Assembly: GCA_963555705.1 (NCBI GenBank)
Contig: OY743172.1
Location: 23,435,446-23,499,445, forward strand
DNA from: Ligustrum vulgare
Lineage: Eukaryota; Streptophyta; Magnoliopsida; Lamiales; Oleaceae
Direction: 5' to 3'
Length of the DNA stretch: 64,000 bases
A program made the position numbers and the translations under genes. Under the pieces are notes generated by a model. That model did not search any database. It saw only the letters and a list, made by a program, of their open reading frames with translations, and was not told the DNA's origin. Position 1 is the first letter of the stretch. Each line of letters opens with the position of its first letter. Shown one piece after another: positions 13,396 through 32,772 of this stretch.

Positions 13396-13603
13396 TGTTA
13401 TAAAATCATCGAAATCATAAGAACAACATAGAGAGAGAAATGGAGAGAGTTTAGAGGAGAGAATTTCTCTTCAAGAATTGGTGTAATAAATTGGTAAGTA
13501 TAGGCTCCTATTTATAGGAGTGGACAATGGCACAATCGTAATATTGTAAAGTTTACAGGGATATAATGGTAATGTCATTCACATATATACATTATTTATA
13601 ACA
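13396..13603 (-). repeat. Element 1 LTR (left copy, 3' LTR)
   Basis: 208 bp, identical to 19517-19724. It includes the palindromic TATA region CTCCTATTTATAGGAG (13504-13519), which on the minus strand reads CTATAAATAG. Confidence 0.93.
13504..13519 (-). promoter_or_regulatory. Palindromic TATA box in the element 1 LTR
   Basis: CTCCTATTTATAGGAG is a perfect inverted repeat around TTTA. The minus strand has TATAAATA. Its symmetry could allow initiation on both strands, which would help express the antisense cargo; that is inference. Confidence 0.5.
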
Positions 13604-13613
13604 CTCCCCCTTG
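13604..13613 (-). promoter_or_regulatory. Polypurine tract of element 1
   Basis: The minus strand reads CAAGGGGGAG directly against the LTR, the usual position for plus-strand priming in reverse transcription. Confidence 0.8.
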
Positions 13614-13633
13614 AATGACATATTACGCAATTG

Positions 13634-14333
13634 TCTGCCTCGTTAAAACCTTGCTAAGAAAACCCAATGGGATAAAACTTGAGCGAAGGAAAAAGAGTAC
13701 AGTTGCTCCCCCTGATATTGGCCATCGTCAATCGTTGAGTCTTAATGTTCAAGTAGAACAAATCATGTATTGAATCTTTGAAGTTCTTCAGTGCTTCAGT
13801 GCTGCCTCGTTAAAACCTTGTCAGTAAAACCCAATGGGACAAAATCTGAACGAAGGAAAAAGAGTACAGCCGCTGCCTCGTTAAAACCTTGTCAGGAAAA
13901 CCCTGTGGGACAAAACCTGGACGAAGGAAAAAGAGTACAGCATGACAGCATGATTCTCCCCCTGAAGTGTGCAATCAAGTATTCATGAACCTTTTGAATA
14001 ATGATATCATCTTTCTTCTGGAATATATATGAAAATCTTCTTGTGTGTAGTCGATATCATAACATTCTTCATAAGATGTGTATGATTTTCTTCATTTGTT
14101 GATATCATTCCAGTATAACAATGTGTTGCTGAATTATAGCTTGTTGATAGCTATGATGATGCCTCAAAAACCTTGCTAGGAAAACCCTGTGGGACAAAAC
14201 CTCAGCGAAGGGAAAAAGAGTGCATTATTCTCATTAATTTTCATCAATACGCCTCAACTGTTGCCTCATTAAAAAACTTGCTATGAAAACCCTGTGGGAC
14301 AAAACCTCAGCTAAGGGAAAAAGAGTGCAACGC
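13634..14333 (+). repeat. Five copies of an about 65-bp unit (GCCTCGTTAAAACCTTG...AAGAGTACAG)
   Basis: Copies at about 13634-13702, 13800-13868, 13869-13939, 14158-14224 and 14261-14333. Each has three short inverted repeats: CCT-TGTC-AGG, CCC-NNN-GGG and one closing on AAGG. A-rich spacers separate them and the unit ends in GGAAAAAGAGTRCA. Element 2 has the same five copies. The unit is familiar from Copia-type elements of other plants. Confidence 0.85.
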
Positions 14334-14399
14334 GTATTTATTCCTTTCATGGAATATTACATGTATATTGGTGCAATCACGAATCTTTTCATTGTATTT

Positions 14400-14591
14400 T
14401 TCACTTCTGGTGAATAATCAAATTTAGAATTCACTTCTGGTGAATAATCAAATCTATAATTCACTTTCATAGATTGCATCTTTCACTTCTAGTGAATAAT
14501 TAAATATTCATTTTCAAATTCACTTCTAGTGAATAATCAATTTCAAATTCACTTCTGGTGAATATTCATTTTCGTATTCACTTCTAGTGAA
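14400..14591 (+). repeat. Array of six TTCAC-loop-GTGAA hairpins
   Basis: TTCACTTCTGGTGAA, or the same with TTCTA as the loop, occurs at 14400, 14430, 14482, 14519, 14548 and 14577. Copies are separated by ATAATCAAAT-like spacers of 14-37 bp. The five-base stem is perfect in every copy. Confidence 0.9.
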
Positions 14592-15077
14592 TAATCAATT
14601 TCCCAGATGTCATAAATAGTACACTCCAATTTCACTTTCAACATATTATATCATGGAGTCATTTGTATCATTCTATATTGATACTAATCTGGGCATATTG
14701 AATCTTTCAATGATTTATACATGTATGTTCTTGCACTTTATAAACTGCAATTTCTAATTTTGCAGGAGCATAATCAATCATTGAAATAGATATCAATTTC
14801 GACATATAATCTACAATCATTTTACTTGAAATCCCAACGTACCGCGATCAACTGGTACATCAAAGAATACTCCCAAAGTACCGAGATGAGAATCATACAT
14901 TTTGATCTCACTCATTGGTATATCAAGGAGCTCAAGCTAGTGATTTAGACTATAGTCTATCCACCATATGTCATGCCAGTTCTATGAAAAATTTCGCGCG
15001 CAACTAGTCGTCTTTTACGACTGTGAAATATTTTTCATTTGTACATATAATTACTGGCTTTACACATTTAAGCATTT

Positions 15078-15090
15078 GGACTTCAGGTCC
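15078..15090 (+). repeat. Mini-hairpin GGAC-TTCAG-GTCC
   Basis: Perfect 4-bp stem with the common loop. In element 2 the same site (27933-27945) has the loop TTCTG and an unchanged stem. Confidence 0.8.
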
Positions 15091-15353
15091 TTGAACAATA
15101 ATCCCTACATTAGGGTTTCATACTTGGCCAAAGAATTATGATTTCATCAATCTTATTTCATAAGAGGGTATGCAGTCGACTTATTTATCGATTCCATCTC
15201 AATATAACGTGGAGAGATCTCTTTATATGTTCTATCATCAGGTACCTGAATATCTCATCATTTGACTATGTCCCTTTTACTTACTTTGAGTATTTAGCCT
15301 CAAAGGAATCATTTCAATCATTCAAGAGATATTTATTTTTGGAATCGATAGTC

Positions 15354-15386
15354 ATTATGCTTCAGGCATAATTACGCTTCAGGCGT
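15354..15386 (+). repeat. Paired mini-hairpins ATTATGC-TTCAG-GCATAAT and ACGC-TTCAG-GCGT
   Basis: Two adjacent hairpins with stems of 7 and 4 bp. In element 2 (28212-28244) the second has the loop TTTAA but keeps its stem. Confidence 0.85.
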
Positions 15387-15643
15387 GTTTTCACCATAAT
15401 GTTCTCAAATATTATCAATCGGCTAAAATGCCATAACACATGTCATTCTTTTAGGGATGTAATTTCAATCATATATCTCAGTGCGCTTTGGTGGAGTGTA
15501 TGCATATCGCACTTTTACAAATAATAAAGCTTCTTGAGCTATTCCCTGTTTGACATAGAATATTGTTGTATGATAAACAATTTCTGAATAAGTTATTCTC
15601 ATAGAAAATAATTTGGAACTTTTGATAATCTAACCGTTTATTA

Positions 15644-15847
15644 TAGAACTTCTGGTTCTATACGGTTTTATTTCATTTCTATGTATGAATATTTGATTCA
15701 ATACAATATCGCTAAACTTCTGGTTCAATACAATGTATATTTCATTTATGAGCTTCTGGTTCATACTATATGCATATTTCACTTGTACGTATGAACTTCT
15801 GGTTCAATAAGATATTTCACTTGTACATATGTATGAACTTCTGGTTC
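15644..15847 (+). repeat. Cluster of GAAC-TTCTG-GTTC hairpins
   Basis: TAGAACTTCTGGTTCTA at 15644-15660, TGAGCTTCTGGTTCA near 15750 (a G-T wobble keeps pairing), and TGAACTTCTGGTTCA near 15792 and 15833. A copy near 15715 is weaker. They sit among ATTTCACTTGTACATATG-like spacers. Confidence 0.85.
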
Positions 15848-16144
15848 AATACAACATTTATTTCATCAGTATTCTATATAGTTCAAATCAGTATACCTTT
15901 ATTACTTTTAGTATACCGAAAAATCAGGTACAATATCCAAGGAAATATCTCATAATCTCAATCTTGTCGCCAAATCTTCCCTTATATCGAAAAAGGTAAT
16001 GGCATATTATCTCACCTTTTCAATAATTTATTCCATTATTTCTTGATGGAATCCATATCACTGACACGCGGAGCCGCCGCTCTTTTACGCGTTGAATAAT
16101 GCATTTAAATAGATGATTTGGGAAGAAGGCTAGATCCATCAAAA

Positions 16145-16690
16145 ATGGATATCATACTTTCAAATATTCGCAAATATTATTCCAATCTTCCAGTAAATGA
16201 TTTGAGAAAAATTTATCGAATTAGGCTCGAAAGATTGAGGTTGCTGATGGATCATGGCATGTCAGAAGATGTTCGCTGGTTGATCGAAGCAAAAGTTCGA
16301 TTAGCTGGTGAATTACCAGATTCATTTTCTAAGCACAAGCCTGGCTTAGGTAAGAGTACTTTTGCAAAGAAGCGAAGAGCAAAAAGATTAAATAGTTGCT
16401 ACAAATGTGCTCGATGGACATGTGATACCCGTTGTAAATCAATAGGATATTCATCCATAAATCGAGATGATAAGATAGACTTCATTAAGGGTGGACTGAG
16501 TAAGGAGTCATTGGATGATATCCGATTGACTCTTGAGACGCACCCTAGTGGATATGTGCAGCGTGAGCTACTATCTTTATGGGCTAAATTCATCAGCGAT
16601 AAAGAGAGATATAGTCTCAAAAATATAATAGCAAAAGATCCTGTTTGCCATGCTGTTATAAACAATGATGCTTTGGCTATGCAGCATTAA
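16145..16690 (+). CDS. Element-borne ORF: basic Cys-cluster protein, possibly a captured nucleic-acid-binding protein
   Basis: 181 aa, antisense to the element. I chose the ATG at 16145 because it is the start shared with the second copy (29111); an upstream ATG at 16118 is not in frame there. The N-terminal half (about 1-60) is helical and basic. Then comes a G-K-S-x-F-A-KKRRA basic patch directly followed by a four-cysteine cluster, C-x2-C-x4-C-x3-C (CYKCARWTCDTRC), and a run ending DFIKGGLSKESLDD. This order (Ser/Arg-rich patch, 'RRA', Cys cluster, acidic-hydrophobic tail) recalls the small nucleic-acid-binding proteins of flexiviruses (carlavirus/vitivirus type), but the cysteine spacing differs and the match is from memory of the pattern only. 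A captured host gene is equally possible. Against the broken second copy I count 12 silent changes and 7 amino-acid changes plus one nonsense change, suggesting past purifying selection. Confidence 0.7.
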   Translation: MDIILSNIRKYYSNLPVNDLRKIYRIRLERLRLLMDHGMSEDVRWLIEAKVRLAGELPDSFSKHKPGLGKSTFAKKRRAKRLNSCYKCARWTCDTRCKSIGYSSINRDDKIDFIKGGLSKESLDDIRLTLETHPSGYVQRELLSLWAKFISDKERYSLKNIIAKDPVCHAVINNDALAMQH

Positions 16691-16939
16691 TACAAGGTAA
16701 ATCATTTGATATATATGCACATATAAAATATTTTTTTCTGTTTCCTTTCACGAGTTTTGATAAAGGCTGGTTAAAAATATTAAATCGCCGAAAGGTGAGT
16801 AGGATGATTTTGTCAAAAGTAAATCTTCACTTTTTCGAAAAACGACCAGTAAATAGTGAAGTTTTTCGGTTTTAAATAGCCAAACATTTTTCATAGTTCA
16901 TGCATCCCAAAATAACATTTTCCTTCTTTACTTTCAAAA

Positions 16940-17593
16940 ATGGAAGGACCAAAATTTCGACAGATCAAAACTATCTGTGTATTTTGTGGATCAAAAGTGG
17001 GAAAAGGTTTTGGGTATCTAGAAGCAGCCGTGGATTTAGGAAAGAAATTGGGAGAGAAAGGTATCACTCTCGTGTATGGAGGAGGTAGCAGTGGATTGAT
17101 GGGTTGTGTTTCACAATCCGCTCTAGTAGAGAAAGCAAGAGTGATAGGTGTTATACCTACTCCTTTAGCTGATATTGCAGGCAAAACACGAGGGCATGAA
17201 GTACAAACCTTATCTATCCATGAACGCATAACTTGCATGTTATATGGTTCTGATGCCTTCATAGCCCTGCCTGGAGGTTTTGGTACTTTAGAAGAAATCT
17301 TTAATATTACTTCATGGGCTCAACTAGATCTCCATACTAAGCCTATAGGGCTTTTAAATGTAAACAATTTCTTTGATGGTTTGCTAACATTTCTTGATTA
17401 TGCTGTGGAACAGGGATTCATATCTCCATTTTCTAGGAGAATCCTTATTTCTGCTCCTACTATCGAGGAACTGCTGGATAAGTTGCAATCATATATTCCA
17501 ATACAAGATCCAGCAGGAGTAAAGATAGATTGGTCGCAAGGAAGGGGAATCAAGCGAAAATGGAGTCCGGTTAATGTAAATTTATCTTTGTGA
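16940..17593 (+). CDS. LOG: LOG-type cytokinin riboside 5'-monophosphate phosphoribohydrolase, intronless copy inside an LTR element
   Basis: 217 aa, full length for the family (about 215). LOG enzymes release active cytokinin bases from their ribotides in the cytosol. The ICVFCGS strand and the nucleotide-binding GGGSSGLMG (usually GGGSIGLMG) are present. The hallmark LPGGFGTLEE has its catalytic Glu, and the conserved Arg is in HER (usually followed by K; here HERI). SWAQLDLHTKPIGLLNV and the GFISP segment also fit. The C-terminal tail (KRKWSPVNVNLSL) is unusual. Plant LOG genes have several introns; this copy has none, so it came through an RNA intermediate. It lies 249 bp after the Cys-cluster ORF, on the strand opposite to element transcription. 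Its sequence is clearly diverged from typical LOG1-LOG8, so an old capture is likely. Whether it is expressed is unknown. Confidence 0.9.
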   Translation: MEGPKFRQIKTICVFCGSKVGKGFGYLEAAVDLGKKLGEKGITLVYGGGSSGLMGCVSQSALVEKARVIGVIPTPLADIAGKTRGHEVQTLSIHERITCMLYGSDAFIALPGGFGTLEEIFNITSWAQLDLHTKPIGLLNVNNFFDGLLTFLDYAVEQGFISPFSRRILISAPTIEELLDKLQSYIPIQDPAGVKIDWSQGRGIKRKWSPVNVNLSL

Positions 17594-17815
17594 ACTCTAG
17601 AATAGGTGGTGGTAGAGTACGGAGTATTCTCACTCTTGAGACACACCATAAATTTCTAGGATTTTATCAATGTATTAATCTTGTGTACCTCAAAGATTTA
17701 AAGTGGTAGAGTATGGAGTATTTCTTACTCTTGAAACACACTTTTTTCTTTATTTCCTCAAAAGGTCAGAGGTGGTAGGATACGGCTACTCCCGAAACAC
17801 ATCTCTAATTTTGAG
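17594..17815 (+). repeat. Three degenerate copies of a GTGGTAGAGTA...ACTCTTGARACACA unit downstream of LOG
   Basis: Copies begin near 17605, 17702 and 17772. Each reads GGTGGTAG(A/G)(G/A)TA(C/T)GG...ACTC..GAAACAC. The second contains a GAGTA-TTTCT-TACTC stem. Element 2 has the same three after its LOG copy. Confidence 0.65.
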
Positions 17816-17863
17816 GATCATAAATGTTTTCCCCTTTTGCATTTTGCATGTATGTCTCGTTTA

Positions 17864-17935
17864 TGCTTCTTCAGGAGCAATAATAATATCATTTCAGTAT
17901 GTTTAGATGATAATTTTTACTTCTTCTGGAGTAAA
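17864..17935 (+). repeat. Bulged mini-hairpins TGCT(T)C-TTCAG-GAGCA and TTTACT(T)C-TTCTG-GAGTAAA
   Basis: Both have the same architecture as the other CTTCNGG hairpins, with one extra T on the 5' arm next to the loop-closing C. A weaker third copy begins at 17940. Confidence 0.75.
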
Positions 17936-18130
17936 TATGTACTTCTTCTGGAATATATAAGTGCTCGTGCAAGAACTTTTCCAGGCACTTATCATCTAAC
18001 ATTCATCTCATAATACTGATGAGATTATTTTCACATTAGCTATATCCGTGCTATCATGTGATATTATCTTATCATACATCAACATTCTCTTGTTGAATAA
18101 TTTTCATCCACCCATTCAAATTCAGATATT

Positions 18131-18254
18131 GGTAACTTCTGGTACCATTGGATAAAACATTTTATTAATATTTATCAACCTTTTGGTAATGATAACTTCT
18201 GGTATCATTTGATAAAATATTTTCTAACTTTAGTATTGATAACTTCTGGTATCA
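18131..18254 (+). repeat. Bulged mini-hairpins GGTA(A)C-TTCTG-GTACC and GATA(A)C-TTCTG-GTATC
   Basis: GGTAACTTCTGGTACC at 18131-18146. ATGATAACTTCTGGTATCAT at 18189-18208. TGATAACTTCTGGTATCA at 18237-18254. All carry a single unpaired A at the same position of the 5' arm. Confidence 0.8.
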
Positions 18255-18406
18255 TTTAATGAAGTATCAAATAACAATAATATTGTATATATATATTAAC
18301 AATAACGATACTGGGGTTATACCACCAAGTATATATGTTGACAACAACCCTCTAATATGTTAGAATTAACCAACAACTGAGGTGTTTATATGTATTCAAT
18401 TGATAT

Positions 18407-18574
18407 ACCGACCATATAGGCGGTGTCAACGTGATGAAATAATTAAACCAGCCATATAGACGGTATCAACGAGATGAAACAATTAAACCGGCCATATAGG
18501 CGGAATCGACATAATGAAATAATTAAACCGGGTAAAGCCAACCATGTAGGTGGTAAAACCAACCATGTAGGTGG
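18407..18574 (+). repeat. Second hairpin family, CCN(x)CC-ATRTA-GGN'GG
   Basis: CCGACC-ATATA-GGCGG at 18408, CCGGCC-ATATA-GGCGG at 18488, and CCAACC-ATGTA-GGTGG at 18538 and 18559. A degenerate copy lies near 18448. The third stem pair switches between G:C and A:T while one base before the inner CC stays unpaired. Confidence 0.8.
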
Positions 18575-18779
18575 CAGCATAATATAATTCAATTGATCAC
18601 ATATTAATCGTTAATTTACGATTATTATACTTGTATGTATTATTAAGGGCAAAATCGTCCATATTTTAATATATTGCTCATATGAATAAATTGAAACCGT
18701 CAATAGGTTTAAAATTTAATTTAGAACAAACTTACTTTTGGTCCGAAGTTCAAAATCTCGTCAGGATTGCTCCAAAAAC

Positions 18780-19400
18780 AGTTTTTAAGAAAACCGCCAT
18801 GTTCGACCGCCGGAATATTTTAAAAACTGCACAAAACAGAAAAATAAGATCATAGAAAAATCCAATTCATCAAAACGGACAAACTGCCTTTCGTCATCGC
18901 CGGATCCGCCACGCGCCGCCGCCGCCGGCCGCCAAGCGCCGGTGATCGGAAAAATTAACCCATCACCATAATATGTGCCTCGGCGTCCTGAACATGCCGG
19001 TGGTCTCCGATTTTCCAAAAGATCAACCGTTTGGCCGGAATCATCATTTTTCAGTCCGCCAGCATCTTCTTCTCCGGACAATAACTTCCGTTTTAACCGT
19101 TGGATTTGCGTCAAATTTCAGTCGAGTCTTCTCCTAGAAAAACCCGTTGATATGCCGCTGGCCGATCGTCGATCGGAGTTCAGAATCGTCGGGAATAAGC
19201 ATTTCAATTTTCGGTCAGATATCTGTTTTTGCACAGTTTTTCAGATTTTCTTCTTCGGTCAATATCTTTTGTTTCAGCCGTTGGTTCTGCGCCAAATTTT
19301 AGGCGAGTCTTCTCCTTGACAAGCCCGTTCTGATGGCGGTGGCCGATCGTCGATCGGATATCTGGATCGGCCAGAATCATTCTTTTTCAGTTTGAGAGAA
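18780..19400 (-). other. GC-rich CGCCGG block in the leader of element 1
   Basis: A GC-rich island around 18890-19000 (CGCCGCCGCCGGCCGCC and similar), followed by two related stretches around 19100-19180 and 19270-19370 that both end in GGCCGATCGTCGATCGGA. No protein domain is recognizable. Element 2 and the TRIM have comparable blocks. Confidence 0.6.
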
Positions 19401-19497
19401 AAGGAAACATTGGTTAGTAATAATCAGGTTTCTGATACAGAGGCTCATCATTTAGATGCAACTGTAGAGCATACTCCCGTTATTACTCAATTGGTTA

Positions 19498-19516
19498 GAG
19501 ACTCGTGCTGATAACG
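19498..19516 (-). promoter_or_regulatory. Primer-binding site region of element 1 (non-canonical)
   Basis: The minus strand reads CGTTATCAGCACGAGTCTC directly after the LTR. It is identical next to the element 2 LTR (32252-32270) but does not match the 3' end of initiator tRNA-Met. The priming tRNA is not identified. Confidence 0.55.
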
Positions 19517-19724
19517 TGTTATAAAATCATCGAAATCATAAGAACAACATAGAGAGAGAAATGGAGAGAGTTTAGAGGAGAGAATTTCTCTTCAAGAATT
19601 GGTGTAATAAATTGGTAAGTATAGGCTCCTATTTATAGGAGTGGACAATGGCACAATCGTAATATTGTAAAGTTTACAGGGATATAATGGTAATGTCATT
19701 CACATATATACATTATTTATAACA
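19517..19724 (-). repeat. Element 1 LTR (right copy, 5' LTR)
   Basis: 208 bp, identical to 13396-13603. Followed by the target duplication GTTTT at 19725-19729. Confidence 0.93.
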
Positions 19725-19799
19725 GTTTTGACTGTTTTCAGTTAACCAAAGCATTTTTTTTCTTAAAAAAGCATAAAACACCTACTTTACAAAAACAAT

Positions 19800-19889
19800 G
19801 GGGCTAGCTTAAGTGATTGGTGCATCACTAACACGCAAGGTCACGAGTTCGATCTGCTACGCTACAATGGCAGTTGAATTTTTTTTTTC
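19800..19889 (+). mobile_element. Short tRNA-derived SINE-like sequence
   Basis: An A-box-like TAGCTTAAGTGATTGG and a B-box-like GGTCACGAGTTCGATCT are spaced as in plant Au-type SINEs, and a T run ends the unit. It sits between element 1 and the Harbinger transposon. It is short, and no target duplication was established. Confidence 0.45.
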
Positions 19890-21944
19890 ATACATTTAGG
19901 ATCTGTTTGATATCCACTATTTTTCATAGAAAATGAAAAATTTTAACACATTTTCTAGCTTTTGTTCTGTTTGAAAGGAAAAAATTTTGTCCGAAATTTT
20001 TTCCTTCTTTTGAGCACGTGATCCTTTTTTCCTTCATAGGCTGGAAACCGTATTCTTTCCGTTCAGTAGATAAAATATTTTCCACCGAAAACATCTTTTC
20101 TCCCCCATTTACTCACGCCATGCCCTAGCTCCATCCATTTCCTCCTACTCTTCGCCGACCACCGGGAACTTCAACTCAACGGCTGGAATCTGGATTTATA
20201 TAGGTAATCTGTCCACTTCATTTCTCTAGTTCATCACGTTCTATTGAAGTAGCGAATCGACCAGTTTCGAGGGTGTAGTGGAAGGTATCGATTCCTAATT
20301 TTTTTGTCATTTTGCAAACCGAATGCCTGAAAATTCATCTCATAGTTGAAGACTTTTTCTTTTGGTTCAGTAATCTTGCCAAACAACCAAAGAAGTTTCG
20401 GATCTTGCTCCATATCTTTTCAATTCCGACCACTAACAGGTAATTCCATGACTATTTTTTGTGAAGGAATTTGAATCTCGTGTGTTTGTAATCAATCAGT
20501 AGGTTAGAATTTGTGAAGTTTTTTTTTTTTTTATTTGTTTGTATTGTTGAGGAAATATTTTTTCAGTCTCAAAAATTTGAGTTAGGGTCTGTTAAATTCT
20601 CTTGCAGCAATGTTGATTTATTTTCTCTTTTTCCTTTTCACTTTCTTTTTCTATACTAGCTGAATTGCAATTTGGAACAAATATTGCAGCACAGATTTGC
20701 CATTTTACTTTTCTCACATTTAATATGTAAATGCTCAAACTTGGTTAGTGTAGACTTTGATGGACATAAAATGGGAACTGAAACTGAAAATGGTGTAGAC
20801 TTTGATGGACATAAATTTGGAATCCTTCTAGTTTAGGATTTGAATTCCTTATTCATAATTTTTTATTTAGTAGGCACCTGTTTCAGTTCGGTATATAATT
20901 TACTATCAGTGATATGATTATTGAGTTTTTAAAGCTTTTTTGACCCCCTGTGATGCTATCACGATTCAACGTGTGATGCCTTTGGATCCTAGGGGCATTT
21001 TCAGTCCTGCATTTCTTCTCTACTTTCTCGTGTGATCAATCTTCTGAACTTCACCTTTATTTTCACGATAGCTTCTTTCTTGTCTCAACAAGGTTGTCCT
21101 ACGAAACTAGTTCCCGAATATGGCATTTAAGGACAACCATGATAAAAACAAATTCAAAACATAAAACATTGTCATTTGTTTAAAGAATGCAAGCATTTTT
21201 CTTCTCCATCCTGATAAGGCTCCTCAAATTCCTTCAAACATCTCATCAAATAATATTCCAATTGTTCTGATACATTCTCAAATAGAAACCATGTAGACTC
21301 TCAGACCTCTCTCTATCACAATCAAACAGTCCATGTTAATTTCTAGTATCTCAAAAGCCCTTTCCAACTATTTCTTTTAATCTCTGTAATGGAATACCAC
21401 TCTAATCTATCGATTGCCCATATAGCTTACCAACCTATGACTATGAAAATATCTTGTACTTGTCTCCCCTCTTTAACTTGTTTAGATTTTATTCTCTTCC
21501 TTCAAGCAATTATTTCTTTCAAACCCAAATCTCGGCAAACTCTTCTCTCAATTATCATCCTTCTCTTCTAGATTCATCCTTCATATTTCTTTCTTAATCT
21601 CTTTGATTCTTGGTGACTTATCAAAATGCTTCTATAGTGTCATATATCATTACTAGTCTATTAGTGGGAATATTATGTATTCATTATTAGTACTAATCTT
21701 GTTTGTAACTTGAAAGTTTTTTGTAATACATGTTAGTGATGAACATAGCTCCAAGATTTTTGAGTTTGTATTAAAAGTTTAGGCTTGACCATGATAGGTG
21801 TTAATTTTTTGTTATTCTTCACAATTTACATCATACCAACACTATTTTAGATGTGGTATAAGTGCAATGGATACCATAACGAACCTACGTCGTCGCCAAC
21901 GACAACAATTGGGTATTTTTTGGATGATGGTAATGTAAGCAGTA

Positions 21945-23053: not shown

Positions 23054-24401
23054 TCTTTGATATTTTGTTAGGCATTTGGTACGTTGATGATATAAATGTT
23101 CAACCCAAGTCACATCGTTTGTCCCAACGAGTTATTTAGCTACTCATACTAAAATCTAAAACAATAAAACGCAAAATAGAAAGTTAAACGTGCTAATCAA
23201 CATTGAAAAGAGAGTTTAGAATTTGGCACCAAGAAAATCAATACAAACGTTAAATCTATATTCTTCCTTTTGCCTCTATTCTCTTGATTCCCCTCCCCCC
23301 CCCCCCAAAATAATGATTTTTCTTGGTCTTTATATAGTGTAAACTAGGTTTTTACGATTTCTCCAAGTTGGGCTCAAAAAAATAGGAAAGAATTCAGAAA
23401 ATTAGGCAAAAATCGAGAATTTCCCCATATTTCAGCCGGACCGCGGCATACAAGGTTAAAGTGGAACCGCGGTTAGCTTTTTTAAAATATTTGTGACTCA
23501 GTCCTTCTGTAATTGCATGTCTGGTCCTCCAAGTATCTGACTTCTGCAATTCAGTCCACATACTTTGAGTTTTATTTGAATTTAGTCCTCCCAGAATTGC
23601 AACTCAAGTCCTCCATCTTTTTGCCATTTACAAATTGGTCCTCATACTTCATATTTTGTGCTCTTTTATTTCCTTTTCCCTCATTTTTGTGCCCAAGTGC
23701 ATTTCAATCCGCATTATCCCTGAAACAATTAAAATAAACATGCCACTTAGCAATATCATATTCTAAAATACTCACATTAGTGCAAATTTTAGGCATGAAA
23801 TTAAGTGCAAACTCGCACTTATCAGTATCCACATGATTCATGAGTTATGTATCTAGCTTCCAAAAGTGGTGCTCAAGTGGGTCACAATTGAAATATAAAA
23901 CATGTCTTTTAGGAATTGATAGTGGGTCATTAGTTTGCTGTTTTATGAAAGTTGTAGAAAGTAACGATTATTTTATGGATATTTGACAAAAAAAAATTGA
24001 AAATATGTTGATTTGTGGATAAATATTTATGGACTACAATAAAGAATATGTCGGATAAATATTTTTGAAATATATGGTTGAAAAGTTGTGACACATATGG
24101 ATGAAACAAATACATGATTTTGATCTATAATTTTCCCAATAAATTTTACATGGAAAAATCAGAAATTCCATAGAAAATAATAACTATCAAACACCAATAA
24201 CTAGAAAAAAGTACAATTTTCATGGAAAAAAAGCCAGTCAAACACAAAAAGTTAGAAAATCTCAACATTTTCTAGGTGGAAAATTTTACCAATCAAACAC
24301 ATTTAAATTTCAATTCCCAGGAAAACAAATTGCTAGAAACTCAATTCCCTAGAACTCGTTTTCTTTCCACCTAAATTCCACATTCGCTATCAAACGGACC
24401 C
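23054..24401. other. 3' part of the Harbinger element without ORF
   Basis: No Myb-like ORF is visible. Inverted copies of TTTTCTAGG/AATTTTCC-like words near 24180-24390 mirror 19915-20110 and are probably subterminal repeats. A run of 12 C lies at about 23294-23305. Confidence 0.5.
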
Positions 24402-24453
24402 TTATAGTTTACTAAGCATACGGTCAAAACAATTTTACTCACTTCTCTAAGTG

Positions 24454-25201
24454 TAGGAGTCGGCACATTTTCCCGAAATCTGTGAAATCGGACCGAGATC
24501 GATTAGAACCGATCGGTCCAGATCTGGTTCTACCAAGAAATATTTTTGATTTGGTACTTGTATTTAGAACCGAACGGGAATCGGTCCGATTCCAGATTCT
24601 TATTAATTGGAACTAACGATACTTCGGTTCCCTTGTATGTTAAATTTTTTTTTTTTTTTTTTTTATTATAAATCGTGAAGCGGTGAAATCGTTTTGGCAA
24701 GTTCTCATTTGACTAAAATTTCTTCCGATTCCCAACTTCCCACATAAATAGTATCCTCCTCCAATTACATCCAATCTCTTTGATTCTTCACTTTATATAA
24801 TCATTAATCAATTTAACTCTTAATTTAAGTTTTAACTCACAATTTCCAACCCCAAATCTAAATCTTTCGGCATTACCTAAATCATAAATAATTTTACAAA
24901 CAAAACTCTAAAAGCTGTTGATATGAAATTTCGATTTTCGAAGGTAAATTTGAGCAAACGGTAGAGTTGAAATAATTTTTTTTAAAAGTAGCGTTGAAAT
25001 AAATTTTTAATTTTTATTAAGAAATATTTTATTTTAACATTTTCTAATGTAAAGGATCGAATCGGTCCTGGTTCGGTTCCGATTCGGTTCCTAGCCAAAT
25101 ATGGAACCAATGGTTCCATTACTTAGAGTCTCATTGGTAATCAGTTCGATTCAGTTCGATTTCTTTCGAAATCGGACCAAATTGGACCGCGCTCACTCCC
25201 A
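24454..25201. mobile_element. Non-autonomous hAT element (748 bp)
   Basis: The ends TAGGAGTCGGCAC and, reversed, TGGGAGTGAGCGC match at 9 of 13 positions. The 8-bp target duplication TCTAAGTG is perfect (24446-24453 and 25202-25209). Subterminal words of the GGTTC/CGGACC type cluster near both ends. There is no transposase ORF. Confidence 0.8.
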
Positions 25202-25209
25202 TCTAAGTG

Positions 25210-25985
25210 GGAAGATTTGAACCCAGGTGCAAGCTAAAATGTCAAATTCTTATCGATATGGCAACCGCTTATTTGTGTCACCAAATTAAGCAGAATGTAT
25301 AAGACTTACTCTGGTTTTGACTTTGTGACATTGATTTTCTATTATCTTTCTTAAATGAAAAAAAAAAAGAAAGTAATTTGATTATGGCTTCTTCCTGATT
25401 ATGTTAGTCTTTACAATTAAGCAATGTTTGATTTGTTAAGAAAAAATAAAAGTTAATTGGAAAGTGTGATTAAAAAGTTATAAAAATGATCGATTTAAAG
25501 TGGTATATGAATGACAATGTTCTAAAAAAATCTTCTAAGTGTCGTCTAAGTACAATGCTCTAACGTAGTACCTAATCTCAGTTAATACATGCATAGATGA
25601 ACTTTATTAATTTTTTATTTTTTGTATTTTAAAAGCTCTTTAGTTGACTATAATTTTAAGTTTTAAAATGATTTTACATATAAAAGTAAAAAATAAAATA
25701 TACGTTTGAAAATCCCAAATATATATATACATACATACATATATATATATTATTCTGATTAAACAAATCAATCAATTTTTTAGATACAAAATATATAAAA
25801 AAATAATAATGATTCTTGAAATTTTAAAGTAAACTCAATTTTATATATTGAAAAACAGTTCCAAAATTACAAAAAGAACATATTTTCAGCAATCTCAAAA
25901 CAAATACCGAAAACAGAAAACTCAAAACACAATCAAAAACTCAAAACTGATACCTCAAACACAAAGAGAAGAGAACGGAAGTCTC
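25210..25985. other. AT-rich intergenic region with no recognizable feature
   Basis: Includes TA dinucleotide runs near 25718-25750. I see no gene. Confidence 0.5.
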
Positions 25986-26226
25986 TGAGCATTTTCCACT
26001 TTGGACATGTTTGATGACAATTTTTTTCCTAGGAAAACATTTTCCTTGACATGGCACGTGATCCCATTTCTACCTTTTTGTGGAAAATATTTTCTTATCA
26101 TTATGATGTCTTTCCGTTTCCCAGCTTGTGGAAACCTGCTTTGGACTTTTTGCCCAGTACAAATGCTCTTTGGCGCTGTCTGATTGACCATCAATTTTCA
26201 AGGAAAATGAAATAAAAAATCATTTT
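25986..26226. mobile_element. Left part of a Harbinger-like MITE split by element 2
   Basis: CATTTTCCACTTTGGACATGTTTGATG and the TTTTCCTAGGAAAACATTTTCC words resemble the ends of the Harbinger element at 19899. The right part continues at 32487-32772 beyond LTR element 2. Outer boundaries are approximate. Confidence 0.5.
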
Positions 26227-26437
26227 TGTTGTAAAACAATAGATAATATAGAGAGAATCAGAGAGAATTTCTTATTCTTCATATTTCATAATGAATATAG
26301 GCCCCTATTTATAGGAGGGGACAATGACATAATCGTAATATTGTACAATGGCATAATCGTAATATATAAATTTTACAGGGGCATAAGAGTAATTTTCTTT
26401 CACTACTTTTGCCTAACTTACCTAATTATTCCTAACA
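26227..26437 (-). repeat. Element 2 LTR (left copy, 3' LTR)
   Basis: 211 bp, 5 mismatches to 32271-32481. It contains a CCTATTTATAGG palindrome as in element 1 and is followed by the purine tract (CTCCCCCTTGAATG on the plus strand). Confidence 0.92.
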
Positions 26438-26469
26438 CTCCCCCTTGAATGAAATATTACTTGCTTGCT

Positions 26470-27122
26470 CAATGGTCTGCCTCGTTAAAACCTTGTTAAG
26501 AAAACCCAGTGGGATAAAACTTGAGCGAAGGAAAAAGAGTACAGAAGCTCCCCCTGATGTTGGCCATGGTAAATCATTGATTCTTCTGAAGTGCTGCCTC
26601 ATTAAAACCTTGTCAGTAAAACCCAGTGGGACAAAATCTGAACCAAGGAAAAAGAGTACAGCCGCTGCCTCATTAAAACCTTGTCAGGAAAACCTAGTAG
26701 GACAAAACCTGGACGAAGGAAAAAGAGTACAGCATGATTCTCCCCCTGAAGTGTGCAATTAAGGATTCATGAACTTCTCGAACATTGATATCATCTTTCT
26801 TTTGAAATACGTATATATGAAAATCTTCTTGTGTGTAGCCGATATCATAACATTCTTCATAAGATGTATATGATTTTCTTTATTTGTTGATATCAATCCA
26901 GTATAACAATGTGTTGTTAATTATAGCTTGTTGATAGCTATGATGATGCCTCAAAAACCTTTGCTAGGAAAACCCTGTGGGACAAAACCTCAGCGAAGGG
27001 AAAAAGAGTACATTATTCTCATTAATTCTTATCAATACGCCTCAACTGTTGCCTCATTAAAAACCTTGCAAGGAAAACCCTGTGGGAAAAACCTCAGCTA
27101 AGGGAAAAAGAGTGCAACGCGT
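26470..27122 (+). repeat. Five copies of the about 65-bp unit in element 2
   Basis: Copies begin near 26476, 26595, 26665, 26946 and 27050, matching the five copies of element 1 in order and spacing. Confidence 0.85.
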
Positions 27123-27383
27123 ATTTATTCTTTTTCATAGAATATCACAAGTATATTGATGCAATCTCATATCTTTTCATCAAAACATATCATTCATGAT
27201 GAGCTTTATATAAATCATTCATAGCTCATTTATGATGTCATAGTTTATTTATGATGTACTGAACATGCTATACCAAGCAATGTTTATTTAGTTGACTGAT
27301 TACATTTCTCAAATCTAGAATTGATTCACTTCTATCAAAATCTAGAATTCACATCTGATGAATAATTAAATATTCATTTTCAT

Positions 27384-28244
27384 ATTCACTTCTGGTGAAT
27401 AATCAATTTCCGGTGGATAATATAATTTTGCATATTTAAAATCAATTGCATGCCCAAATATTCAAATATAATAATAGTACACTCCAATTTCAATTTCAAC
27501 ATATTATATTATGGGGTCATTTGTATCATCCTATAGTGATACTAATCTTGGCATATTGAATCTTTCAATGATTTATACATGTATGTTCTTGCACTTTATA
27601 AACTGCAATTTCTAATTTGCAGGAGCATAATCAATCATTGAAATAGATATCAATTTCGACATATAATCTACAATCATTTTACTTGAAATCCCAACGTACC
27701 TCGATCAACTGGTACATCAAAGAATACCCTCAAAATACCGAGATGAGAATCACACTTTTTGATCTCACTCATTGGTATATCAAAGAGCTCAAGCTAGTGA
27801 TTTAGATTATAGTCACATCCACCATATGTCATGCCAGTTCAATGAAAAATCTTGCGCGCAACGAGTCGTCATCTACGACTGTGATATATTTTCATTTGTA
27901 CATATAATTACTGGCTTTACATTTAAGCATTTGGACTTCTGGTCCTTGAATAATAATCCATACATTGGGGTTATATACTTGGCCAAAGTATTATAATTTC
28001 ATCAACCTCATTTTCATAAGAGGGTTGTATGTAGTCGACTTATTTATCGATTCCATTTCAACTTAATATAAAATAGAGAGATCTCTGTATATGTTCTATC
28101 ATCAGGTACCTGAATATCTCATCATTATGTCCCTTTTACTCACCATGAGTATTTAGCCTCAAAGGGATCATTTCAATCATTCAAGAGATATTTATTTTGG
28201 AATCGATAGTCATTATGCTTCAGGCATAATTACGCTTTAAGCGT
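27384..28244 (+). repeat. CTTCNGG mini-hairpins of element 2
   Basis: TTCACTTCTGGTGAA near 27385, GGACTTCTGGTCC at 27933-27945, ATTATGCTTCAGGCATAAT at 28212-28230 and ACGCTTTAAGCGT at 28232-28244. Fewer TTCAC copies remain than in element 1. More copies of other stems lie near 28748 and 28788 (GAAC stem) and at 30788-31142. Confidence 0.8.
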
Positions 28245-29110
28245 GTTTTCCCCATAATATTCACAAATCTTATATTATATCAATCGGCTAAAATGCCGCA
28301 ACACATGTCATACAATCATATATCAAGTGCGTATTGTTGGAGTGTATATAGATATCGCACTTCTTAGAAATCATAAAGTTTCACAAGCAAATCATTATTT
28401 CATCGTATTGACATGTTTATATGTAGAATATTGCTGCATAATCAAATTGTTCTCATAGCAAATAACTTGAGGCTTTTAATCTGCTAAACCATTAGCAATA
28501 TAATATTCTATTATCTCAACTAATTCGTAAAATCATTAATGACTTTAAGATATATTCATGCTAGCATTTATCACTTTGCTCGTAATATCATTACTTGAGC
28601 AAAAAATCAGTCATTCATTTAGTGAGATAATTAATTTTCTTTTGAGAACAAGCAGCAATGATAACAATCTTCTGGTTCTTTAATGAATGCCATTATTCAT
28701 TCTCAATAAATCTCATTATTGAATTGGAATCTAACCAATCATTATAGAACTTCTGGTTCAACAAGATATTTCACTTGTACATATGTATGAACTTCTGGTT
28801 CAATACAATATTTATTTCATCAGTACGTATTTCTGTACAGTTCAAATCAGCATACCTTTATTACTTTTATACCGGAAAAATCAGGTACAATATCCAAGGA
28901 AATATCTCATGATCTCAATCTTGTCGCCAAATCTTCCCTTATATCGAAAAAAGGTAATGACGCATTATCTCATTGTTCTCACCTTTTCAATAATTTATTC
29001 CATTATCTCTTAATGAAATCGATATCACTGACACGCGGAGCCATCGCTCTTTCACGCGTTGAATAATGTATTTAAATAGATGATTTGGGAAGAGGCTAGA
29101 TCTATCAAAA

Positions 29111-29656
29111 ATGGATATTATACTTTCAAATATTCGCAAATATTATTCCAATCTTCTAGTAAATGATTTGAGAAAAATTTATCGAATTAGGCTCGAAAGA
29201 TTGAGGTTGCTGATGGATCATGGCATCCCAGAAGATGTTCGCTGGTTGATCGAAGCGAAAGTTCGATTAGCTGGTGAATTACCAGATTCATTTCCTAAGC
29301 ACAAGCCTGGCTTAGGTAAGAGTACTTTTGCAAAGAAGCGAAGAGCAAAAAGATTAAATAGTTGCTACAAATGTGCTCGATGGACATGTGATACCCGTTG
29401 TAAGTCAATAGGGTATTCATCTATAAATCGAGATGATAAGATAGATTTTATTAAGGGTGGGCTGAGTAAGGAGTCATTGGATGATATCTGATTGACTCTT
29501 GAGACACACCCTAGTGGGTATGTGCAGCGTGAGCTACTATCTTTATGGGCTAAATTCATCAGCGATAAAGAGCGTTATAGTCTCAAAAATATAATAGCAA
29601 AAGATCCTGTTTGCCAGGCTGTTATAAACAATGATGTTTTGGCTATACAGCATTAA
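29111..29656 (+). pseudogene. Broken copy of the Cys-cluster ORF
   Basis: Collinear with 16145-16690, without indels in the coding part. An Arg codon has become TGA at 29489-29491, cutting the product to 126 aa after the Cys cluster. The downstream frame is still open to the original stop. The upstream ATG of element 1 is out of frame here. Confidence 0.85.
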
Positions 29657-29917
29657 TACAAGGTAAATCATTTGATATATATGCACATATAAAATATTTT
29701 TCTGTTTTCTTTCACGAGTTTTTATAAAGGCTGGTTAAATATATTAAATCACCGAAAGGTGAGTCGGGTGATTTTGTAAAAAGTAAATCTCTACTTTTTC
29801 GAAATACGAGTAGTAAATAGTGAATTTTTTTCAAGTTTAAAAGCCAATGATTTTCACAGTTTATGCATCCCAAAATATCATTTTCTTGTAAGTTTTTCCT
29901 TCTTTATTCTTTCAAAG

Positions 29918-30518
29918 ATGGAAGGACCAAAACTTCGACAGATCAAAACTATCTGTGGATCTTGGAAAGAAATTGGGAGAGAAAGGTATCACTCTCGTGT
30001 ATGGAGGAGGTAGCAGTGGATTGATGGGTTGTGTTTCACAATCCACTCTAGCAGAGAAAGTAAGAGTGATAGGTGTTATACCTACTCCTTTAGCTGATAT
30101 CGCAGGCAAAACACGAGGACATGAAGTACAAACCTTATCTATCCATGAACGCATAACTTGCATGCTATATGGTTCTGATGCCTTCATAGCTCTGCCTGGA
30201 GGTTTTGGTACTTTAGAAGAAATATTTAATATTACTTCATGGGCTCAACTAGATCTCCATACTAAGCCTATTGGGCTTTTAAATGTAAACAATTTCTTTG
30301 ATGGTTTACTAACATTTCTTGATTATGCTGTGGAATAGGGATTCATCTCTCCATTTTCTAGGAGAATCCTTATTTCTGCTCCTACTATCGAGGAACTGCT
30401 GGATAAGTTGCAATCATATATTCCAATAAAAGATCCAGCAGGAGTTAAGATAGATTGGTCGCAAGGAAGGGGAATCAAGCGAAAATGGAGTCCGGTTAAT
30501 GTAAATCTATTTTTGTGA
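29918..30518 (+). pseudogene. LOG: Broken copy of the element-borne LOG gene
   Basis: Two lesions relative to 16940-17593. A 53-bp deletion just after the ICVFCGS-encoding region begins shifts the frame; its ends lie at short CTGTG/CCGTG repeats. A Gln codon has become TAG at 30336-30338, before the GFISP segment. The LPGGFGTLEE motif is still encoded. In the shared part I count 12 silent and 5 amino-acid changes plus the nonsense change. Confidence 0.9.
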
Positions 30519-31305
30519 ACCCTAGAATAGGTGGTGGTAGAGTACGGAGTATTCTCACTCTTGAGACACACCATAAATTTCTAGGATTTTGTTAATGTTT
30601 AATCTTGTGTACCTCAAAGATTTAAGGTGGTAGAGTATGGAGTATTTCTTACTCTTGAAACACACCTTTTTCTTTATTTCCTCAAAAGGTCAGAGGTGGT
30701 AGGATACGGCTACTCCCGAAACACATCTCTCATTTTGAGGATCATAAATGTTTCCCCCTTTTACGTTTTGCATGTATGACTAGTTTATGCTTCTTCAGGA
30801 GCAATAATAATAATATCATTTCAGTATGTTTAGATGATAATTTTTACTTCTTCTGGAGTAAATATACACTTCTTCTGGAATACATAAGTGCTCGTGCAAG
30901 AACATTTCCAGACACTTTATCATCTAATATTCATCTCATAATACTGATGAGATTATTTTCACATTAGCCATATCCGAGCTATCATGTGATATTATCTTAT
31001 CATATATTAACATTCTCTTGTTGAATAATTTTCATCCACCCATTCAAATACAGATATTGGTAACTTCTGGTACCATTGGATGAAATATTTTTATCAACAT
31101 TTACCAACTTTTTGGTAATGATAACTTCTGGTATCATTTGATGAAATATCAAATAACAATAATATCACCATGTATATAATAATATCACCACGTATATATG
31201 TTGACAACATCCTCTAATATGTTAGAATTAACCAACAACTGAGGTGTTTCTGAAATAATATAAAATATGAATATATGTAAAGTATTCTATATATTCAATT
31301 GCTAA

Positions 31306-31395
31306 ACCGACCATATAGGCGGAATCGACATAATGAAATACTTAAACTGATAAAGCCAACCATTTAGGTGGTAGAACCAACCATGTAGGTGGCAA
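31306..31395 (+). repeat. Second hairpin family in element 2
   Basis: CCGACC-ATATA-GGCGG, CCAACC-ATTTA-GGTGG and CCAACC-ATGTA-GGTGG, in the same position relative to LOG as in element 1. Confidence 0.75.
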
Positions 31396-31829
31396 CAACA
31401 TAATGAAATAATTACCTTTCATGAGTGAGCGAGTCGTATCTTCAAATCCAGTCAAGGTATTCATAATAGTCCAATCCGTTACGATAATGAGTCATCTCCA
31501 GTTAAGGTATAAATCCAGTTCATAAAACTCAATCCATCACGGTATGACAACTATTATGTTACTTTTAAATATTTTAATTTATCGTATTGATTACATGTTA
31601 AATAATTTAGAATATATATTTTATTAACACTTATCATCATATCATTAATAATGATTAATCAATTTCGTTAAATCACGATTAATATATTTTATCGTATCAT
31701 TAAGGGCAAAATCGTCCATATTTTAATATATTGATCATATGGATAAATCGAAACCGTCAATAGGTTTGAAATTTAATTTAGAACAAACTTACTTTTGGTC
31801 CGAAGTTCAAAATCTCGCCGGAATTGCTT

Positions 31830-32110
31830 TAAAAATAGTTTTTACGACGCCGCCACGTTCGACCGCCGGTGTCGGAGCCGTCGACACGCGTCGGTGCCGG
31901 AGGATCGTCGCCGTCGCCGTCGTCATGGATCTGTTGTCCGATCGTTATTTGGATTTATGGTTTGGCGTGAATTTGCTTTGAAAGTTTCGATTTTTTCAAC
32001 TTTTCTTCTCCGGTCGATATCTTCTGTTTCAGCCGTCGGATTATCTCCAAATTTCGGGCGAGGCTTCTCCTTGAAAAATTCGTTCTGATGGCGGTGGCTG
32101 ATCGTCGATC
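31830..32110 (-). other. GC-rich CGCCGG block in the leader of element 2
   Basis: GC-rich island (31848-31925, many CGCCGTCGCCG words) placed as in element 1, followed by GGCTGATCGTCGATCGGAT. Only this tail aligns clearly with element 1; the island itself differs in sequence. Confidence 0.55.
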
Positions 32111-32270
32111 GGATATCTGGATTGACCGGAATCATTCTTTTCAGTTTGAGAGAAAATGAAACATTGATTAGTAATAATCAGGTTTCTGATACAGAGGTTC
32201 ATCATTTAGATGCAACTGTAGAGCATACTCCCGTTATTACTCAATTGGCTAGAGACTCGTGCTGATAACG

Positions 32271-32481
32271 TGTTGTAAAACAATAGATAATATTGAGAGA
32301 ATCAGAGAGAATTTCTTATTCTTCATATTTCATAATGAATATAGGCCCCTATTTATAGGAGGGGACAATGGCATAATCGTAATATTGGACAATGACATAA
32401 TCGTAATATATAAATTTTACAGGGACATAAGAGTAATTTTCTTTCACTACTTTTGCCTAACTTACCTAATTATTCCTAACA
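32271..32481 (-). repeat. Element 2 LTR (right copy, 5' LTR)
   Basis: 211 bp. Preceded by the same primer-site sequence as in element 1 and followed by the target duplication ATTTT at 32482-32486. Confidence 0.92.
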
Positions 32482-32486
32482 ATTTT

Positions 32487-32772
32487 CATCCCATCAATTT
32501 TGTTACCATTAATTAACTTATTTGTGTTCCAAAAAATAACATTATCACTATCAAGTAAAAAAGTAAAAAGAAAAAATTAAAAAAAATTAAAATATCTAAA
32601 ATAATTTACTTTATTAATGTCAATTAAACAACGAAATTTGAAAAAATTTCAACTTTTTGCACCTAAAAAATTAAACAAATCAAACACTCTCAATTAAATT
32701 TTCAGGAAAATAATTTCCTTAGAAAATATTTTCTTTCCACCCATTTTCCACTCTCGTAATCAAACACACCCT
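32487..32772. mobile_element. Right part of the Harbinger-like MITE split by element 2
   Basis: The stretch AAATATTTTCTTTCCACCCATTTTCCA through GTAATCAAACACACCC closely parallels the right end of the Harbinger element (about 24355-24401). This supports a derived MITE of the same family, into which element 2 inserted. Confidence 0.55.

What the first reader, a model, noticed from the sequence alone, without database searches (positions are those of the whole stretch)
13396..32481. Two non-autonomous LTR elements carry an antisense two-gene cargo: LOG plus a Cys-cluster protein
Seen: both elements have LTRs, target duplications, a purine tract and a primer region but no gag-pol. Both have the same two ORFs in the same order and spacing, on the strand opposite to element transcription. 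The LOG copy has no introns although plant LOG genes do. Established: some plant LTR elements carry extra ORFs, sense or antisense, and a few carry host gene pieces (for example maize Bs1). Inference: a mobile, multicopy source of a hormone-activating enzyme could shift cytokinin levels wherever it is expressed.
Basis: partly seen in the sequence, partly recalled or inferred. Interest (0 to 1): 0.9.

Follow-up and report, generated by a model that had tools for sequence, protein, structure and literature searches.

The report
Retroelements carrying viral-type protein plus LOG
Two plant jumping elements carry, on the strand opposite to their own transcript, a gene related to a plant-virus silencing suppressor and a changed version of a cytokinin-activating enzyme gene, and relatives of both genes occur in other flowering plants.

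Summary
Two LTR elements (13396-19724, 26227-32481) have LTRs, 5-bp target duplications, PPT and PBS, no detectable gag-pol, and two antisense ORFs; in copy 2 both ORFs are broken. LOG in plant LTR elements is already in print, so that part is not new.

(2) It has 355 database relatives, among them Orobanche, Populus and Acer; one (L001) lies in sense just downstream of a Ty3/gypsy integrase. (3) The LOG falls in a clade apart from ordinary plant LOGs: both catalytic residues are kept, but two base-pocket residues, invariant in 120 host LOGs, are replaced in 114 and 115 of 120 relatives. (4) 95 of 120 relatives end in LxLxL, usually after a basic stretch, an EAR-like signature found in 0 of 120 host LOGs; the window copy has a weaker form. 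(5) Both ORFs show purifying selection. (6) The window elements hold repeated hairpins with a constant loop.

I read the pair as an old accessory module acting on nucleic acid and transcription in the nucleus, rather than a plain cytokinin source. Expression and biochemistry were not testable.

The parts
13396..13603 (-). Element 1, 3' LTR (element sense is minus)
   Evidence: 208/208 identical to 19517-19724, TSD GTTTT on the outside
13604..13613 (-). Element 1, purine tract next to the 3' LTR
   Evidence: minus strand reads AAGGGGGAG then TGTTATAAA
16145..16690 (+). NABP-like ORF, 181 aa (open from TTG 16118), antisense to the element
   Evidence: Viral_NABP E 3.6e-8 and Carla_C4 E 1.3e-4; 355 relatives
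16940..17593 (+). LOG-like ORF, 217 aa, antisense to the element
   Evidence: Lysine_decarbox E 7.4e-34; tree; pocket; tail
14404..15850 (+). Hairpin repeats, plain class, upstream of the ORFs
   Evidence: core CTTC[TA][GA]G with paired flanks
17869..18260 (+). Hairpin repeats, class with one bulged base, downstream of the ORFs
19500..19516 (-). Element 1, primer-binding region
   Evidence: minus strand reads CGTTATCAGCACGAGTC after the 5' LTR; the matching tRNA was not determined
19517..19724 (-). Element 1, 5' LTR
26227..26437 (-). Element 2, 3' LTR
   Evidence: 206/211 identical to 32271-32481, TSD ATTTT
29111..29656 (+). Element 2, NABP-like ORF, broken by an in-frame stop
29919..30519 (+). 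Element 2, LOG-like ORF, broken by a 53-bp gap and an in-frame stop
32271..32481 (-). Element 2, 5' LTR

Best explanation
The two ORFs are an old accessory gene pair of plant LTR retroelements. Gene 1 is a nucleic-acid-binding protein of the flexivirus cysteine-rich/silencing-suppressor family. Gene 2 is an ancient, diverged LOG that keeps the nucleotide-hydrolase catalytic pair but has a changed base pocket and, in most relatives, a basic plus LxLxL tail. SHOWN at sequence level: family identities, antisense placement, clade structure, purifying selection, changed pocket, tail conserved in the family, and a related NABP in sense behind a gypsy integrase. INFERRED: the pair is transcribed from its own plus-strand promoter inside the element; the proteins act in the nucleus; NABP binds element nucleic acid or counters RNA silencing; the LOG recruits or titrates TOPLESS-type corepressors and/or hydrolyses a nucleotide other than the usual cytokinin precursors; the net effect is to ease expression of the element and of the element that supplies gag-pol in trans.
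For: Viral_NABP and Carla_C4 matches; the first 35 rows of the viral fold search are 31 named flexivirus proteins and 4 unnamed (all E above 0.01); 355 relatives; pN/pS 0.22 for each ORF between the copies and dN/dS 0.35 for NABP against L001; LOG clade 100/99; pocket change; LxLxL tail 95 of 120 against 0 of 120; NABP in sense behind an integrase; three Orobanche gene models joining NABP and LOG in the same order; PVH CRP suppresses local silencing (PMC3689765 passages).
Against: No expression, localisation or biochemical test. The NABP model is weak (pLDDT 69.7, pTM 0.35), no fold match is below E 0.001, and PDB by sequence gave only chance matches. The zinc-finger spacing differs from the carlavirus one. 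The window LOG ends VNVNLSL, not strict LxLxL. The off-frame control for LOG reached 0.39, so its selection signal rests on few changes. L001 has no LOG in its 3.3 kb. Most of the 120 LOG relatives are called retroelement LOGs only by clade.
Confidence: 0.45

Rival explanations
1. One reading: the element LOG is a working cytokinin-activating enzyme, and the element raises active cytokinin in cells where it is expressed, which favours division and its own spread.
For: Catalytic Arg kept in 114 and Glu in 118 of 120 listed relatives and both in the window copy; purifying selection; AtLOG3 is the best solved relative, E 1.6e-59.
Against: Lys100 and Glu125 of the adenine/prenyl pocket are replaced in 114 and 115 of 120 (roles from PMC4979012 passages); LxLxL tail absent from host LOGs.
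Confidence: 0.2
2. The antisense transcript itself matters: it pairs with the element RNA and regulates copy number by small RNAs, and the ORFs are secondary.
For: Proposed for antisense ORFs in the review PMC7264820 (parts 1-2 of 3 read); antisense placement here.
Against: Purifying selection on both reading frames; NABP is in sense in L001.
Confidence: 0.12
3. Passive cargo: host or viral sequences caught by chance, without use to the element.
For: Element 2 has lost both ORFs yet kept its structure.
Against: Relatives of both genes in several plant orders; purifying selection.
Confidence: 0.08
4. The pair is a host gene pair (a domesticated retroelement product) that the elements happen to carry.
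For: Database annotations name some relatives as LOGL10 genes of Populus and Diospyros.
Against: LTRs and target duplications around both copies; 36 of the 120 listed LOG clusters come from one genome, Reevesia pubescens, on many chromosomes.
Confidence: 0.05

Closest known systems
YgdH/LOG domain in plant LTR retrotransposons (Steinbauerova et al. 2011, seen only as cited; Alvarado-Marchena et al. 2022, PMC9289625, section 12 read)
   Same: LOG-family domain inside LTR elements of Citrus and Populus; reported there among gypsy-type consensuses that contain reverse transcriptase.
   Different: No partner gene, orientation, pocket or tail is described in the section read; the window elements lack gag-pol and carry the LOG antisense with a NABP.
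Flexivirus cysteine-rich / nucleic-acid-binding proteins (PF05515 Viral_NABP, PF01623 Carla_C4)
   Same: Profile match above the curated cut-off, basic stretch followed by a Cys4 motif.
   Different: Carried by plant LTR elements; Cys spacing X2-X4-X3, against X2-X9-X4 in Potato virus H (PMC3689765 passages).
Antisense extra ORFs of plant LTR elements (Grande, RIRE2, Retand, PvRetro13; review PMC7264820, parts 1-2 of 3 read)
   Same: ORFs opposite to element transcription, conserved across copies.
   Different: [quoted passage not shown] here pol is absent and both ORFs have named families.
AlkB-type m6A demethylase gene in Phalaenopsis gypsy elements (PMC9289625, abstract and section 12 read)
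   Same: A retroelement with an added gene acting on nucleic acid.
   Different: Single gene, 25-kb gypsy-type elements, found only in Phalaenopsis in that screen.
Plant LOG enzymes (AtLOG3, 2A33; AtLOG8, 1YDH)
   Same: Core fold family, PGGxGTxxE motif, catalytic Arg and Glu.
   Different: Lys100 and Glu125 replaced, C-terminal basic plus LxLxL-type tail added.

Membership tests
Non-autonomous LTR retrotransposon | Two LTRs starting TG and ending CA with target-site duplication | tested here: met
   both elements, 5-bp TSDs
Non-autonomous LTR retrotransposon | PBS and PPT next to the LTRs | tested here: met
   the tRNA was not identified
Non-autonomous LTR retrotransposon | No gag-pol | tested here: met
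   plus frames of element 2 not scanned
Non-autonomous LTR retrotransposon | Moves with gag-pol of a partner element | not testable with these tools
   The genome search did not complete; no partner similar to the elements elsewhere in the window
Flexivirus NABP (PF05515) | Profile score above the curated cut-off | tested here: met
   34.1 against 23 bits; 8 of 10 relatives pass
Flexivirus NABP (PF05515) | Basic motif and zinc-finger-like Cys motif with carlaviral spacing | tested here: inconclusive
   KKRRAKR and CX2CX4CX3C (101 of 120 listed); PVH has CX2CX9CX4C
Flexivirus NABP (PF05515) | Encoded at the 3' end of a flexivirus RNA genome | tested here: not met
   lies in an LTR element or behind a gypsy integrase
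Flexivirus NABP (PF05515) | Silencing suppression or nucleic-acid binding | not testable with these tools
   needs bench work
LOG cytokinin-activating enzyme | PGGxGTxxE motif, catalytic Arg99 and Glu122 | tested here: met
   window copy has all; 114 and 118 of 120 relatives for the two catalytic residues
LOG cytokinin-activating enzyme | Adenine/prenyl pocket residues Lys100 and Glu125 | tested here: not met
   Ile and Asn in the window; kept in 6 and 5 of 120 relatives, 120 of 120 in host list
LOG cytokinin-activating enzyme | Releases cytokinin base from the ribotide | not testable with these tools
   needs enzyme assay
EAR-motif protein | LxLxL motif (definition recalled; TOPLESS recruitment from PMC6916588 passages) | tested here: inconclusive
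   strict in 95 of 120 relatives, 0 of 120 hosts; window copy VNVNLSL, relaxed only
Antisense extra ORF class of plant LTR elements | Antisense ORF between pol and 3' LTR | tested here: inconclusive
   antisense yes, but no pol is present

The most novel reading that the evidence does not exclude
Plant retroelements have kept, since about the asterid-rosid split, a two-gene nuclear effector module: a flexivirus-type nucleic-acid-binding silencing suppressor and a LOG turned into a substrate-shifted protein that contacts the TOPLESS corepressor. The module moves between unrelated element lineages (NABP in sense behind a gypsy integrase, the pair antisense in elements without gag-pol) and counters host silencing in trans.
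Probability: 0.27. Interest if true: 0.9.

Novelty: new variant of a known kind. Interest (0 to 1): 0.72.

Why it matters
Antisense genes in plant LTR elements are known, but their origin and role are open; the 2020 review PMC7264820 says none has clear similarity to known proteins or viruses. Here both antisense genes have named families, and one is a viral silencing-suppressor family. That makes a direct test possible of whether some plant retroelements blunt host silencing with a protein of viral type, and it links RNA viruses and retroelements by a shared gene. It also warns that proteins named LOGL10 in Populus trichocarpa and Diospyros lotus (P0179, P0237, P0125) fall in the same LOG clade as the window copy and should not be taken as ordinary cytokinin genes without test.

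Tried and rejected
Relatives in viral contigs: NABP sequence, NABP alignment, LOG and a DNA pattern of the 71-bp repeat gave no relative. Rfam at the gathering threshold: no match in 13300-32600. PDB by sequence for NABP: chance-level matches only. The first NABP model (24 rows) was too weak, pLDDT 57.7, and was repeated with 105 rows.

Contig-length fingerprint for linkage of NABP and LOG: of 8 coincidences (shifted mean 2.9, maximum 7) I dropped the four short ones (873, 905, 1006, 1018 bp), because such contigs are too short for both genes. Four above 1.5 kb remain (shifted mean 0.43, maximum 3). This is indirect evidence.

Considered and dropped: hidden pol in element 1 (only NABP, LOG and two weak hits below their cut-offs, LysX_preATP_grasp E 0.089 and TyeA E 0.007); an autonomous partner in the window (element 1 has no blastn match outside the two elements at E 1e-5); the hairpins as binding sites that go with NABP everywhere (L001 has no such core on plus).

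Folding of three hairpin stretches as RNA: z on plus -5.7, -2.6 and -0.7, on minus -3.9, -1.5 and -0.6, so the third stretch is not more stable than shuffles.
Full report
ANATOMY. Both elements are as described. Element 1 (13396-19724) has 208-bp LTRs identical at 208 of 208 positions and TSD GTTTT. Element 2 (26227-32481) has LTRs identical at 206 of 211 positions and TSD ATTTT. In both, the minus strand carries CGTTATCAGCACGAGTC after the 5' LTR and AAGGGGGAG before the 3' LTR; the LTR of element 1 has TATAAATAG on minus. The element transcript is therefore minus and the ORFs on plus are antisense. No gag or pol domain reached E 0.1 in the three minus frames of either element or the three plus frames of element 1. 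LTRs of the two elements differ strongly (118 of 173 aligned positions identical, 73 gapped columns). The interior varies: 300-base windows range from 63% to 97% identity, highest (95-97%) over the two ORFs and the stretch after LOG.

THE CYS-CLUSTER PROTEIN. ORF 1 matches Pfam Viral_NABP (E 3.6e-8, 34.1 bits, cut-off 23) and Carla_C4 (E 1.3e-4, 22.3 bits, cut-off 20.9). Of 10 relatives scanned, 8 pass the Viral_NABP cut-off (P0043 only just, 23.1) and 9 the Carla_C4 cut-off. An AlphaFold model from 105 sequences is of middling quality (pLDDT 69.7, pTM 0.35). Against BFVD it gives 44 matches with E up to 10, none at or below 0.001, the best 0.016. The first 35 rows are 31 named proteins of flexiviruses (family placement recalled) and 4 unnamed; many are called RNA silencing suppressor or nucleic acid binding protein. 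TM-scores are low (0.14-0.34 by query length over all rows), so sequence similarity carries part of this. The family has KKRRAKR-type residues before CX2CX4CX3C (the strict pattern in 101 of 120 listed). [quoted passage not shown] Direction of transfer between virus and retroelement is not settled here.

DISTRIBUTION. 355 proteins match ORF 1 at E up to 0.01; the best 120 are listed. Named sources in that list are Orobanche, Populus, Xanthoceras, Rhamnella and Acer. In a quick tree of 33 chosen rows the window copy groups with P0001, P0003 and Orobanche, and the named rosid rows lie across a 97% branch (unrooted), which fits old descent within eudicots but does not exclude horizontal transfer. 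Three Orobanche gene models join NABP to a LOG piece in the same order (P0023, P0025, P0031). Four contig lengths above 1.5 kb recur in both hit lists (55 and 28 lengths; shifted mean 0.43, maximum 3).

A SENSE RELATIVE BEHIND A GYPSY INTEGRASE. The scan of prokaryote genomes returned one locus, L001, 3,330 bases, filed under a Nomurabacteria MAG; it reads like misbinned plant DNA (inference). An ORF with integrase zinc-binding and core domains (Athila-like by recall) is followed in sense by an intact NABP ORF (1787-2347) and then a purine-rich run resembling a PPT. No LOG is found in the 3.3 kb and no hairpin core of the window type on plus. NABP is thus an accessory gene of at least two kinds of element, in opposite orientations.

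THE LOG. In a tree of 62 rows, 33 rows including the window form one group (100/99). Four Xanthoceras rows (P0122, P0123, P0197, P0222) join next (together 96/90); the 22 host LOGs and AtLOG8 lie apart (100/99) (rows chosen by hand from the two lists of 120; the program warns of long branches joining between host and outgroup rows). Only the window copy here, and the Orobanche and contig-length cases, tie a LOG to an element or to NABP; the rest are called retroelement LOGs by clade. In the 120 listed relatives the catalytic Arg is kept in 114 and Glu in 118; Lys100 in 6 and Glu125 in 5; Ser19, which binds phosphate, in 53, and His97 in 67. In the 120 listed host LOGs all of these are invariant. 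That host list was drawn with AtLOG3 as query and is narrow, but AtLOG8, YvdD and PA4923 also have both Lys and Glu (alignments). PMC4979012 places Lys100 in the adenine and prenyl sites and Glu125 in the prenyl site, across the dimer (passages). P0167 keeps both residues and shares its contig length with a NABP hit (P0094), so the pocket change is not universal. In 95 of 120 the last 16 residues hold LxLxL, and 99 of 120 have a basic stretch before it; host LOGs have 0 of 120 for both, and shuffled tails average 4.5, maximum 13. The window tail KRKWSPVNVNLSL matches only the relaxed form. EAR proteins recruit TOPLESS (PMC6916588 passages); that LxLxL is an EAR form is recalled.

SELECTION. 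Between the two copies pN/pS is 0.22 for NABP (11 synonymous, 9 non-synonymous changes) and 0.22 for LOG (11 and 8). Off-frame controls gave 1.47 and 2.24 (NABP) and 0.39 and 1.31 (LOG), so the LOG figure is less secure. NABP of element 1 against L001: dS 0.86, dN 0.30, ratio 0.35.

HAIRPINS. The core CTTC[TA][GA]G occurs 46 times on plus in the window, 35 of them in the elements; its complement 20 times, 4 in the elements. In the elements 22 of 35 have four Watson-Crick pairs outside the closing pair, in a plain or a one-base-bulged register, against 0 of 11 elsewhere; sliding the partner gives 2 at most. There are 4 distinct stems in each class. An independent count of TTCT[AG] loops with stems of four or more gave 13 of 61 in the elements, 0 of 130 elsewhere, 0.39 expected. 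Many repeats are tandem copies of one another, so the counts are not independent events. The constant loop on one strand suggests a single-strand role; partner and strand are unknown.

PRIOR ART. YgdH (LOG) in plant LTR elements is reported (PMC9289625, section 12), citing Steinbauerova 2011, which is not held. PMC7264820 (parts 1-2 of 3) says antisense ORFs show no clear similarity to known proteins or viruses. PMC11593424, on LOG evolution, does not contain 'retrotransposon' or 'transposable'. Searches on LOG and LTR terms, carlavirus and retrotransposon terms, Pfam names of NABP, endogenous flexivirus terms and EAR, LOG and LTR terms listed no paper that, by title and start of abstract, describes this pair; PMC3136472 reports a flexivirus replicase-like sequence in cucumber, not a NABP (passages). 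The library holds open-licence papers only.

VERDICT. It is a new variant of a known kind (LTR element with extra ORFs), with a viral-type partner gene, a changed LOG pocket and an EAR-like tail that I did not find in print in those searches. The mechanism is inferred, not shown.

Noticed in passing
window 14404-18260 and 27389-31140: Families of short hairpins with the constant core CTTC[TA][GA]G, several different stems, plain upstream of the ORFs and with a bulged base downstream; function unknown.
   Followed up: partly
window 13635-14330 and 26477-27134: Repeats of about 71 bases (CCTTG..AGGAAAACCC..TGGGACAAAACCT..) next to the 3' LTR side of both elements.
   Followed up: partly
window 18407-18574: Tandem repeats of 40 and 21 bases (CCATATAGGCGGTATC..., CCAACCATGTAGGTGG) in element 1.
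   Followed up: no
L001 1-3330: A contig filed under a Nomurabacteria MAG carries a gypsy integrase ORF and a NABP ORF of plant type; probably misbinned plant DNA.
   Followed up: yes
window 1329-3578 (+): Open 749-aa ORF that reads like a hAT transposase (recalled, no family search made).
   Followed up: no
window 22470-22772 (+): ORF with a DDE_Tnp_4 match (E 3.4e-6) between the two elements, as of a PIF/Harbinger element.
   Followed up: no
window 60078-60728 and 62100-62825 (-): ORFs that read like copia pol pieces (recalled); no blastn similarity to the two elements.
   Followed up: no
database proteins P0125, P0179, P0237: Proteins annotated as LOGL10 in Diospyros lotus and Populus trichocarpa fall in the same clade as the window LOG.
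   Followed up: partly
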